Assembly (NCBI GenBank): GCA_009929415.1
Contig: SAAM01000002.1
Coordinates: forward strand, 1 to 51,519
Direction of reading: 5' to 3'
Length of the DNA: 51,519 nucleotides
Source of the DNA: Clostridia bacterium
GTDB lineage: Bacteria > Bacillota > Clostridia > Peptostreptococcales > Filifactoraceae
Shown here piece by piece: positions 22,240 to 44,972 of this stretch. A program made the translations under genes and the position numbers. The notes under the pieces were generated by a model. It ran no database searches. It saw only the letters and a list, made by a program, of their open reading frames with translations, and was not told the DNA's origin. Numbering within the stretch: position 1 is the stretch's first letter; each line of letters opens with the position of its first letter.

Positions 22240-22471
22240 TAAAAAGCCCTTATGAGATTAATCTCATAAGGGCGAATTTACGCGGTACCACCTTATTTGT
22301 TCAATAGAACATCTCACGATTATAACGTAATCAACGCATTGTTTTCACAAATGAACTCCAAGGTAGCTTCATAATACTGCTGTAGAGATTCTCATCAACC
22401 ATCTCTTTTCTGGAATCAGCCTGTAAAATTACTAGTCCTTTTCATAGTAGGTCTTCTATATATTTTCTTTA
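22240..22471 (-). promoter_or_regulatory. T-box riboswitch leader of alaS
   Basis: About 230 nt of leader RNA. The T-box element AAGGTGGTACCGCG is at 22281-22295 (minus). It is followed by a terminator stem, and the antiterminator bulge pairs with tRNA. A stem I region lies upstream. In the sequence ATGAAGCTACC the codon GCT (22365-22367) is the likely specifier for alanine. Uncharged tRNA-Ala should stabilise the antiterminator and allow alaS transcription. Confidence 0.93.
22241..22273 (-). terminator. T-box terminator of alaS
   Basis: A perfect 28-bp palindrome at 22246-22273 (stem of up to 12 bp with a 4-nt loop) is followed on the minus strand by TTTTT. It is the alternative to the T-box antiterminator. 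Confidence 0.9.
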
Positions 22472-35012: not shown

Positions 35013-36296
35013 TTATACTAATTTTGCGTTTTCTAATAATAAGTCAACAGTCTTTCTTGCAACAATCGTGCTCTTTATTGCTTCGTCCTGGGAGTTCTGG
35101 AATATTTCCTTAATTTTCTCTACTTCCAGCTTGTATATATCCGCCATCTTCTTGTATTCTGCTTCCATGTCTTCTTCAGTAGCTTCTACCCCTTCTGATT
35201 TTGAAACTGCATCAACTGCAAGACTTATTCTTACTCGCTTTTCAGCATCTTCCTTCATCTGATCTTCAAGTATCTCTTTTGAAGTTCCAGTGTACTGATA
35301 GTAAGTGTTAAGATCCATCCCCTGATATCTCAGGTTGTTTTCAAAATCCTTAAGCATGTTGTCTACTTCATTTTTTACCATGACTTCAGGAATTTCTACC
35401 TCTATATTCTCAGCAAGCTTTTCTACAACTTCGTTTTTCATAGCATCTTCTGCGCTTTTTTTCTTATTTTCAGCAGCCTTGGCTCTTATATCGTTCTTTA
35501 GTTCTTCAAGAGTTTCAAATTCAGTAGTATCCTTTACGAACTCATCATCTATCTTCGGAAGCTGCGTCTCTTTTATTTCGTTTATTTCAACTGCAAATAC
35601 AGCTTCTTTTCCTTTCAGATCTTCTGAATGATAGTCTTCAGGGAAAGTAACAACAACATCCTTGCTGTCTCCAGCGTTCATTCCTATAAGCTGTTCTTCG
35701 AATCCAGGTATGAAAGTGTTAGATCCAACAACCAGGCTGTAGTTTTCTGCTTTTCCGCCTTCGAATTCAACACCATCCACGCTTCCGCAGAAGTTAAGCA
35801 GTATGCTGTCCTTGTCTGAAACAGGTCTGTCCTCTACAGTGACCATTCTTGCATTCTGTTCCTGCATTTTATTTATTTCTGTCTCAACATCCTCTTCAGT
35901 AACCTCAGCACTTACTTGTTTTACTTCAAGACCCTTGTATTCTCCAAGCTTAACTTCAGGCTTAACCTGAACATTGATTACCATCACAAGGTCTTTTCCT
36001 TTTCCTATTTCCTCTATATCAAGAGACGGTCTGTCAATAACCTCAAGTTTAAGCTCTTCAACTGCATTTCTATATGCTTCCGGGAAAACTATGTCAATAG
36101 CATCCTCAAAAAATATGCCTTCTCCATACATTTTCTCAATAACTGCTCTTGTAGCTTTTCCTTTTCTAAATCCTGGAATATTGAATTGACCCTTGTTCTT
36201 GTTGTATGCCTGCTTGCACGCATTTTCAAAAGCTTCGCTTCCTACTGTAATCTTAAGTGTTACTGTGTTATTCTCTTGTTTTAAAATCTGATTCAT
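35013..36296 (-). CDS. tig: Trigger factor
   Basis: A 427-residue ribosome-associated chaperone and prolyl isomerase. The ribosome-binding signature GFRKGKATR is near residues 42-50. A central FKBP-like domain (DSILLNFCGSVDGVEFEGGKAENYSLVVGSNTFIPGFEEQLIGM, about 160-205) and a helical C-terminal arm follow. It has a GGAGG site and two promoters upstream. First gene of the tig-clpP-clpX transcript. Confidence 0.97.
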   Translation of the reverse strand: MNQILKQENNTVTLKITVGSEAFENACKQAYNKNKGQFNIPGFRKGKATRAVIEKMYGEGIFFEDAIDIVFPEAYRNAVEELKLEVIDRPSLDIEEIGKGKDLVMVINVQVKPEVKLGEYKGLEVKQVSAEVTEEDVETEINKMQEQNARMVTVEDRPVSDKDSILLNFCGSVDGVEFEGGKAENYSLVVGSNTFIPGFEEQLIGMNAGDSKDVVVTFPEDYHSEDLKGKEAVFAVEINEIKETQLPKIDDEFVKDTTEFETLEELKNDIRAKAAENKKKSAEDAMKNEVVEKLAENIEVEIPEVMVKNEVDNMLKDFENNLRYQGMDLNTYYQYTGTSKEILEDQMKEDAEKRVRISLAVDAVSKSEGVEATEEDMEAEYKKMADIYKLEVEKIKEIFQNSQDEAIKSTIVARKTVDLLLENAKLV

Positions 36297-36459: not shown

Positions 36460-37266
36460 CTAATTCATGAGAATATCAATCACCGCTTTGCATTTGCTGA
36501 ATTCTATAAAATATGGACTGGTCGCAATAAGAACGAGGGAAGCATTATCTATGAGCTTTCTTATAATTCTTATTTTTTCACTAAAGTCAATATAATCCAT
36601 CTCTTCGGAAAAAAAGTCCAGGTCCAGATCGAGAACGAAATTTCTGGTTAAATCATATTTATCCATTTCAAGCAGCGAATACTGTGAATCCACACAGTAG
36701 TGATTATCTATTATGTCCATTTTGATAAGGGGTTTTATAAAATTACCGACATTCAGTACTGAATTCGTATATAAAAAGGCAGCAATATCATCTTTATCTT
36801 CACTTCTGAAGTTTGCTTCTATTTCACGCTCTTCTTTTGTACCGGTATTAATCATATCGCGTCTGAATTTTTCAAAGGAAGAAAACAGAGAATTTCTGTA
36901 TTCATCAAAGTATATGTCCGGCTCCCGCATATCTTTGTGCTGATCCACATGTATAAAATCAAATTTTAAGCCGCCTGACTTAAAGTGCTTGTACGCGAAA
37001 TAAAATGAGTGATTGTGATTATCGAAAATAACCATATCCCTGCTGCCTTCATGCTGGACTATAATATTTCCGAGCCCCTTACAGCATGCTTCATTTCCCT
37101 CTTCATCTATTTCTATAAACGCATATTCTTCTCCGGGAGACAAATCTTTAATCATCCCTTCCACAATTGAGGGTACGACTATTTTTTTGACTTTTCTGTC
37201 TTCAAATGAAAACAAATTATTTGATACTGCAACTTCTATATAAAATTTATTGCTGTAAGCTTTCAA
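36460..37266 (-). CDS. UPF0489 family protein (peptide-arginase-like)
   Basis: A 268-residue protein with the UPF0489 signature set: DNHNH (residues 82-86), HVDQHKD (106-112), DLDLDFF (213-219) and ATSPYF (248-253). The DxHxD and DxDxD motifs are the manganese ligands of ureohydrolases (arginase/deacetylase fold). Some UPF0489 members are known as peptide arginases that turn arginine into ornithine in ribosomal peptides. No precursor peptide, radical SAM or transporter is nearby, so a peptide-modifying role is inference only; the substrate may be a protein or small guanidino compound. Start: TTG at 37266, preceded by GGAGG with 4 nt spacing; an earlier in-frame TTG at 37290 lies upstream of the ribosome site. 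It sits between tig and csp, divergent from csp. Confidence 0.78.
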   Translation of the reverse strand: MKAYSNKFYIEVAVSNNLFSFEDRKVKKIVVPSIVEGMIKDLSPGEEYAFIEIDEEGNEACCKGLGNIIVQHEGSRDMVIFDNHNHSFYFAYKHFKSGGLKFDFIHVDQHKDMREPDIYFDEYRNSLFSSFEKFRRDMINTGTKEEREIEANFRSEDKDDIAAFLYTNSVLNVGNFIKPLIKMDIIDNHYCVDSQYSLLEMDKYDLTRNFVLDLDLDFFSEEMDYIDFSEKIRIIRKLIDNASLVLIATSPYFIEFSKCKAVIDILMN

Positions 37267-37357
37267 TTTTCCTCCATTTTTTCTGCTCAATTAAACAAAT
37301 ATAAATCTCAAATACTTAATTTGTGCGAAAATATTTAACTATTTGAATAAAAAATAA

Positions 37358-37492: not shown

Positions 37493-37693
37493 ATGAAACA
37501 AGGTATCGTGAAATGGTTTAACGCAGAAAAAGGATTTGGATTTATTTCAGTTGAGGGAGAAAACGATGTATTCGTACACTTCTCATCAATTCAAACAGAA
37601 GGATTCAAAACTTTAGAAGAAGGACAATCTGTAGAATTTGAAATCGTTCAGGGAGCTAGAGGACCACAGGCTTCTAACGTTACAAGAATCTAA
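37493..37693 (+). CDS. cspA: Cold-shock protein
   Basis: A 66-residue single cold-shock domain that binds single-stranded RNA and DNA. The RNP1 motif KGFGFISV (near 13-20) and RNP2 VFVHFSSI (near 26-33) are intact, and the C-terminus [11 protein letters not shown] is typical. It stands alone on the plus strand with its own promoter and terminator, suggesting high expression. The codons differ from its neighbours (more T/A-ending optimal codons such as GAA, GGA). Confidence 0.97.
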
Positions 37694-44731: not shown

Positions 44732-44766
44732 AAAAAAACTCGTCTCTTTATATATAAAGAGACGAG
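44732..44766 (-). terminator. T-box terminator of argS
   Basis: A perfect 28-bp palindrome at 44739-44766 (CTCGTCTCTTTATA and its complement) is followed on the minus strand by TTTTTTT at 44732-44738. Confidence 0.92.
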
Positions 44767-44972
44767 ACTTTCCCGTGTTACCACTCTTCTTGGTATTTAA
44801 TACCCACTCTATATTCTATAACGTGAATGACTCGTACTTTTTATTTATTAAAGCATCCTCAGAGTTTCTATTCAAAATTCTATCCTACCAAGCTTCCACC
44901 ATCCTTGGTTCTCTATAAGGAAATCTTAATATTTACTTATCTCTTCACAGGAAAATATTTAACTATACATAC
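44737..44972 (-). promoter_or_regulatory. T-box riboswitch leader of argS
   Basis: A leader of about 235 nt with the T-box element AGAGTGGTAACACGGG at 44772-44787. An upstream stem I region carries paired segments such as ACCAAGGATGG...GCTTGGT. In GAATAGAAACTC the triplet AGA (44867-44869) fits the specifier position for arginine. It should let argS be made when tRNA-Arg is uncharged. The rest of the 338-nt gap between copA and argS is promoter and AT-rich spacer. Confidence 0.9.

What the first reader, a model, noticed from the sequence alone, without database searches (positions are those of the whole stretch)
36460..37266. Orphan UPF0489 protein with ureohydrolase metal motifs between tig and csp
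Seen: DNHNH, DxHxD (in HVDQHKD) and DxDxD (in DLDLDFF), in this order, matching the manganese ligands of the arginase/deacetylase fold. Known: UPF0489 relatives act as peptide arginases in ribosomal peptide pathways. Here there is no precursor peptide, no radical SAM or leader peptidase and no exporter in the neighbourhood; the neighbours are trigger factor, Clp and cold-shock genes. A housekeeping arginine-to-ornithine change on a cellular protein, or a small guanidino substrate, would be new. No better clue to the substrate is visible.
Basis: partly seen in the sequence, partly recalled or inferred. Interest (0 to 1): 0.62.

Follow-up and report, generated by a model that had tools for sequence, protein, structure and literature searches.

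The report
Core arginase-like enzyme, substrate unknown
A small enzyme gene built like the manganese enzymes that cut urea off arginine is kept in nearly every member of two related clostridial families, away from any peptide-making gene cluster, and nobody yet knows what it acts on.

Summary
The gene is real: window 36460-37266, minus strand, 268 aa, TTG start behind GGAGG. It is a UPF0489 (PF12640) protein; its AlphaFold model (pLDDT 92.8) has a ureohydrolase core whose best solved match is the peptide arginase OspR (Z 13.3). All six metal ligands are invariant in the relatives inspected. It is not an orphan: it is a single-copy core gene of Filifactoraceae (11/11 genomes) and Peptostreptococcaceae (70/71, including Clostridioides difficile), not found in ten other sampled families of the order, and patchy in Omnitrophota and Patescibacteria-type genomes. 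Linkage to tig holds in two genera only. It forms a distinct subfamily: OspR's Glu11 is Asn, EEHNE is DNHNH, the dimerisation domain is missing and 75 N-terminal residues are added. It fails the defining motif of known peptide arginases, so arginine-to-ornithine chemistry is plausible but unproven. One substrate lead: the genome encodes the SCIFF peptide elsewhere, and an Arg two residues after its last Cys goes with the enzyme (43/46 carriers, 5/65 non-carriers). But the two families are sisters (about one event), three carriers lack that Arg, and SCIFF is absent from the 11 non-clostridial carriers tested.

The parts
36460..37266 (-). CDS of the UPF0489 (DNHNH subfamily) protein, 268 aa, TTG start
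   Evidence: PF12640; orthologues
37271..37275 (-). GGAGG ribosome-binding site, four bases before the TTG
   Evidence: read from the sequence
37042..37266 (-). extra N-terminal domain, residues 1-75 (invariant N16, N17, R24, F50, G64), absent from OspR, no PDB match
37009..37023 (-). DNHNH motif, residues 82-86 (H84 = OspR Mn ligand His12; N83 in place of Glu11; H86 in place of Glu14)
   Evidence: alignment to 8BRP; invariance
36931..36951 (-). HVDQHKD motif, residues 106-112 (Mn ligands D108, H110, D112)
36772..36918 (-). helical insert, residues 117-165, present in Filifactoraceae and nearly absent in Peptostreptococcaceae
36616..36630 (-). DLDLD motif, residues 213-217 (Mn ligands D215, D217)
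35013..36296 (-). tig (trigger factor), next gene downstream; context only, linkage lineage-specific
37493..37693 (+). csp (cold-shock protein), divergent; context only

Best explanation
A metalloenzyme of the ureohydrolase superfamily, a distinct 'DNHNH' subfamily of UPF0489 related to the RiPP peptide arginases. Most likely two Mn ions held by H84, D108, H110, D112, D215 and D217 activate water, which attacks the guanidino carbon of a peptide- or protein-bound arginine, giving ornithine and urea; the enzyme acts in trans on a substrate encoded elsewhere in the genome. Shown by computation: gene, fold, ligand conservation, core distribution. Inferred: metal identity, catalysis, guanidino substrate, peptide rather than free substrate. 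In this lineage the C-terminal Arg of the SCIFF peptide is one candidate site, a weak lead (about 13%).
For: Profile of 29 relatives finds only OspR (peptide arginase, 8BRP) in the PDB, E 4.8e-16. Model pLDDT 92.8; OspR first at Z 13.3, other ureohydrolases at or below 9.5. OspR's six Mn ligands map to six invariant residues. Profile-profile match to OspR-like proteins of the same phylum, E 9.1e-14. Single-copy and near-universal in two families with no conserved partner gene, as expected of a trans-acting enzyme. SCIFF is present in the window's genome, and Arg at Cys+2 of SCIFF occurs in 43 of 46 carriers against 5 of 65 non-carriers; peptide arginases acting on SCIFF precursors are reported (PMC12703449).
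Against: OspR's Glu11, proposed to hold the guanidinium, is an invariant Asn here; Glu14 is His and Ser42 is Lys, so the pocket is less acidic at these places. The dimerisation domain thought to bind the peptide is absent. NCBIfam's peptide-arginase model scores 18.9 bits against a cut-off of 350. The SCIFF association rests on one clade (sister families); G004, G872 and G873 carry the enzyme without that Arg; 11 of 11 Omnitrophota/Patescibacteria-type carriers have no SCIFF.
Confidence: 0.42

Rival explanations
1. It hydrolyses a small guanidino, amidino, formimino or amide metabolite, as agmatinases, guanidinases and formiminoglutamases of the same fold do, perhaps in the amino-acid metabolism of these fermenters.
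For: Same fold and metal site as agmatinase, guanidinase and formiminoglutamase structures. No leader-binding dimerisation domain. The changed pocket (Asn, His, Lys for Glu, Glu, Ser) suggests another substrate. An arginine-deiminase-type block (read from sequence) follows the gene in L043 and lies near it in L055.
Against: OspR, a peptide enzyme, is clearly the nearest solved relative. OspR-type proteins lack the residues that bind the amino-acid backbone of free arginine. Only two loci show the arginine genes.
Confidence: 0.33
2. It is a dedicated SCIFF arginase in Filifactoraceae and Peptostreptococcaceae, converting the Arg after the last Cys-Glu of SCIFF to ornithine; non-clostridial members act on other peptides.
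For: 43/46 against 5/65; SCIFF in the window's genome; reported peptide arginases that act on SCIFF precursors.
Against: One clade, so about one evolutionary event; three carriers without that Arg; a few non-carriers with it (G011, G070 and others); no gene linkage; no SCIFF in the distant carriers.
Confidence: 0.13
3. A non-catalytic member that has kept the fold as a binding protein.
For: Loss of the guanidinium-facing Glu; extra N-terminal domain.
Against: All six metal ligands and many residues beside them (N83, N85, H86, Q109, S250, P251) stay invariant or nearly so across phyla, as expected of a working active site.
Confidence: 0.07

Closest known systems
Peptide arginase OspR (PF12640; PDB 8BRP)
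   Same: Ureohydrolase core (Z 13.3 over 161 residues), six Mn ligands, DxHxD and DxDxD motifs
   Different: EEHNE is DNHNH; Glu11 is Asn83; no dimerisation domain; 75 extra N-terminal residues; no peptide cluster
Peptide arginases FlmR/OhkR (NCBIfam NF052474) and BipC
   Same: Weak profile match around DLDLD; same superfamily
   Different: 18.9 bits against a cut-off of 350; EEH motif missing; not in a RiPP cluster
Agmatinases, arginases, guanidinases, formiminoglutamase (ureohydrolase family PF00491)
   Same: Fold (Z about 9-9.5) and two-metal ligand set
   Different: About 10-19% identity in the structural alignments; no Pfam match to PF00491
'UPF0489 family protein' of Clostridioides difficile (WP_003434933.1)
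   Same: Orthologue, same three motifs; the name is the annotation on the record, so the gene itself is already catalogued
   Different: Lacks the helical insert; lies beside SEC-C, dipeptidase and yabG genes instead of tig

Membership tests
UPF0489 (PF12640) | Pfam profile at or above the gathering score (27 bits) | tested here: inconclusive
   Window protein 24 bits, E 5.6e-5; all 29 relatives match at E up to 0.1, best 1.5e-14
UPF0489 (PF12640) | DXHXD and DxDxD metal motifs | tested here: met
   HVDQHKD and DLDLD; ligand residues invariant in 29 sequences
Ureohydrolase superfamily | Three-layer alpha/beta/alpha fold | tested here: met
   Model pLDDT 92.8; OspR Z 13.3, many ureohydrolases Z 9-9.5; Foldseek probability 1.00, E about 1e-3
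Ureohydrolase superfamily | Six ligands of a binuclear Mn cluster | tested here: met
   H84, D108, H110, D112, D215, D217 align to OspR's ligands and are invariant; metal itself not tested
RiPP peptide arginase (OspR/FlmR type) | EEH(N/H)EAF motif with Glu11 | tested here: not met
   DNHNHSF, invariant DNHNH in all 29 relatives; motif definition
RiPP peptide arginase (OspR/FlmR type) | Dimerisation domain after DxDxD (OspR 170-234) | tested here: not met
   Only 51 residues follow D217, all in core helices and strands
RiPP peptide arginase (OspR/FlmR type) | Encoded beside a precursor peptide and maturases | tested here: not met
   No such genes beside it in the window or in the loci; the only radical SAM gene found near is an MiaB-like ORF read by eye in L056
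RiPP peptide arginase (OspR/FlmR type) | NCBIfam NF052474 cut-off (350 bits) | tested here: not met
   18.9 bits
RiPP peptide arginase (OspR/FlmR type) | Converts peptidyl Arg to ornithine and urea | not testable with these tools
   Needs an enzyme assay

The most novel reading that the evidence does not exclude
A core, trans-acting enzyme of the Peptostreptococcaceae and Filifactoraceae that installs ornithine in a conserved peptide such as SCIFF or in a cellular protein: a housekeeping member of the peptide-arginase kind that lies outside any biosynthetic cluster.
Probability: 0.22. Interest if true: 0.78.

Novelty: new variant of a known kind. Interest (0 to 1): 0.48.

Why it matters
If it acts on a protein or peptide, ornithine would be a routine modification in a clade that includes C. 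difficile, made by an enzyme outside any biosynthetic cluster. Because the gene is single-copy and nearly universal in the clade, one deletion in a laboratory strain plus proteomics and metabolomics would show what UPF0489 proteins without a peptide cluster do. Even if the substrate is small, this defines a UPF0489 subfamily with a changed active site and a new domain arrangement.

Tried and rejected
SEC-C protein as partner: next to the gene in most Peptostreptococcaceae loci, but close homologues are common in families of the order without the enzyme. RluA pseudouridine synthase and methyltransferase: upstream in most Peptostreptococcaceae, but detached in Clostridioides and not adjacent in Filifactoraceae. 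tig: adjacent in two genera only; csp in one. UppP downstream in Filifactoraceae genera g3 and g5: not followed. N-terminal domain alone: Foldseek gave only matches with E above 2 and VIA-align none at Z 2 or more; this does not show a new fold. Mobile spread: no phage match; the two 'plasmid' matches are a 163-kb C. difficile record carrying ordinary chromosomal-type genes and a 2.6-Mb record that looks like a chromosome. Papers: 4 with UPF0489, none on this subfamily; a search for guessed C. difficile locus tags found nothing on the gene. The Fisher p for the SCIFF Arg (2e-21) is not an evolutionary p, since the carriers form one clade. SCIFF as substrate of the whole subfamily: rejected.

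Full report
THE GENE. DNHNH, HVDQHKD and DLDLDFF are there as described. The protein matches PF12640 weakly (24 bits, cut-off 27), but all 29 relatives gathered here match that family, the best at 1.5e-14. The single sequence finds no solved structure; a profile of the 29 finds exactly one, the peptide arginase OspR 8BRP, at 4.8e-16.

FOLD. AlphaFold2 on an alignment of 19 relatives gives mean pLDDT 92.8. Foldseek's top rows are agmatinase, OspR and arginases, with probabilities near 1 but E-values just above 0.001. VIA-align puts OspR first at Z 13.3 (161 residues, rmsd 2.9) and other ureohydrolases at 9.5 or less.

ACTIVE SITE. Alignment to OspR and OspR-like proteins maps OspR's Mn ligands His12, Asp39, His41, Asp43, Asp165 and Asp167 (PMC10028609) to H84, D108, H110, D112, D215 and D217. 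All six are invariant in 29 sequences from Filifactoraceae, Peptostreptococcaceae, Omnitrophota, Peregrinibacteria and Gracilibacteria, and are seen in the eight further sequences printed. The surroundings differ from peptide arginases. Glu11, proposed to hold the guanidinium in OspR, is N83; Glu14 is H86; Ser42 is K111 (Thr in one Omnitrophota sequence, L084). Three OspR-like proteins in the same phylum keep EEHNEA or EEHHEA; beside them I read, by eye, radical SAM and acyltransferase-like ORFs and in one case a precursor-like ORF. So the difference is a subfamily trait. Other UPF0489 proteins (L070, L091) have ENH, so Asn at this place is not confined to this subfamily.

ARCHITECTURE. OspR begins at its first metal-ligand strand and carries a dimerisation domain after DxDxD. 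The window protein has 75 extra N-terminal residues with invariant N16, N17, R24, F50 and G64, and only 51 residues after D217. The N-terminal piece models confidently on its own (pLDDT 90.7) but has no PDB match.

DISTRIBUTION. Single copy in all 11 genomes of the window's family and in 70 of 71 of Peptostreptococcaceae: 60 of 60 high-quality genomes, 23 of 23 genera. The window's family is Filifactoraceae by inference: its member genome G005 is 98.3% identical over 15 kb to a record of Acetoanaerobium noterae. In a sample of the order ten other families had none, and in the phylum sample only OspR-like or other UPF0489 proteins appeared. Outside: 6 of 145 genomes of the Omnitrophota sample and 4 of 287 of the Peregrinibacteria-phylum sample have the DNHNH type. 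A SecA tree joins the two families as sisters (SH-aLRT 99); the UPF0489 tree has Filifactoraceae as one group (95). One gain in their common ancestor and vertical descent is the simplest history.

NEIGHBOURHOODS. In the window's genus and one other the gene precedes tig-clpP-clpX-lon; in two other Filifactoraceae genera it lies near uppP; in most Peptostreptococcaceae it follows a methyltransferase and an RluA synthase and precedes a SEC-C protein. In Clostridioides the first two are detached. No neighbour is conserved across both families, and the SEC-C protein is common in families without the enzyme. Linkage to tig is local and says little about substrate.

SCIFF LEAD. PMC12703449 reports peptide arginases that act on SCIFF precursors. 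SCIFF is encoded in the window's genome on another contig (G000 C376 2573-2701) and in 55 of 59 genomes of the order. In carriers of the enzyme the peptide mostly ends ...NQECER; in non-carriers mostly CEN, CEK or similar. Arg at two residues after the last Cys: 43 of 46 carriers, 5 of 65 non-carriers. Four things limit this. The carriers are one clade, so the association may be one coincidence. G004, G872 and G873 carry the enzyme without that Arg. None of 11 Omnitrophota or Patescibacteria-type carriers has SCIFF, so SCIFF cannot be the substrate of the whole subfamily. And an Arg somewhere after the last Cys also occurs in 22 of 61 non-carriers. I treat it as a testable lead at about 13%.

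VERDICT. A well-conserved, uncharacterised enzyme in an ordinary-looking locus. Fold and metal site are as settled as computation can make them; chemistry and substrate are not. It is filed as a new variant within UPF0489 and not as a peptide arginase, because that family's motif, domain and gene context were tested and not met; it may still work like one.

Noticed in passing
window 22265-22454 and 44755-44957, minus strand: Two T-box leaders above Rfam's gathering score; the genes downstream on the minus strand begin at about 22218 (878 aa) and 44698 (566 aa).
   Followed up: no
L088 and L089 (genomes G730 and G748 of the Omnitrophota sample): Weak UPF0489 matches inside single open frames of 25,332 and 23,032 aa; L089 shows HIDGHAD and DIDID motifs.
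   Followed up: partly
L167 (Filifactoraceae genome G004): Two SCIFF units fused head to tail in one ORF of about 95 aa, both lacking the Arg at Cys+2.
   Followed up: no
L043 8858-11110 and L055: An arginine-deiminase / ornithine-carbamoyltransferase-like pair (read from sequence) follows the UPF0489 gene in L043 and lies near it in L055.
   Followed up: no
L300 (NZ_CP149720.1, 129185-147856): A 163-kb circular C. difficile record labelled plasmid carries yabG, ispE, murI, spoIIR and the UPF0489 gene, which look chromosomal; an assembly error or an excised piece.
   Followed up: no
Peptostreptococcaceae genomes G859 (C14 26604-27295) and G857 (C44 22319-23002): UPF0489 copies with an in-frame stop: decay or sequencing error.
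   Followed up: no
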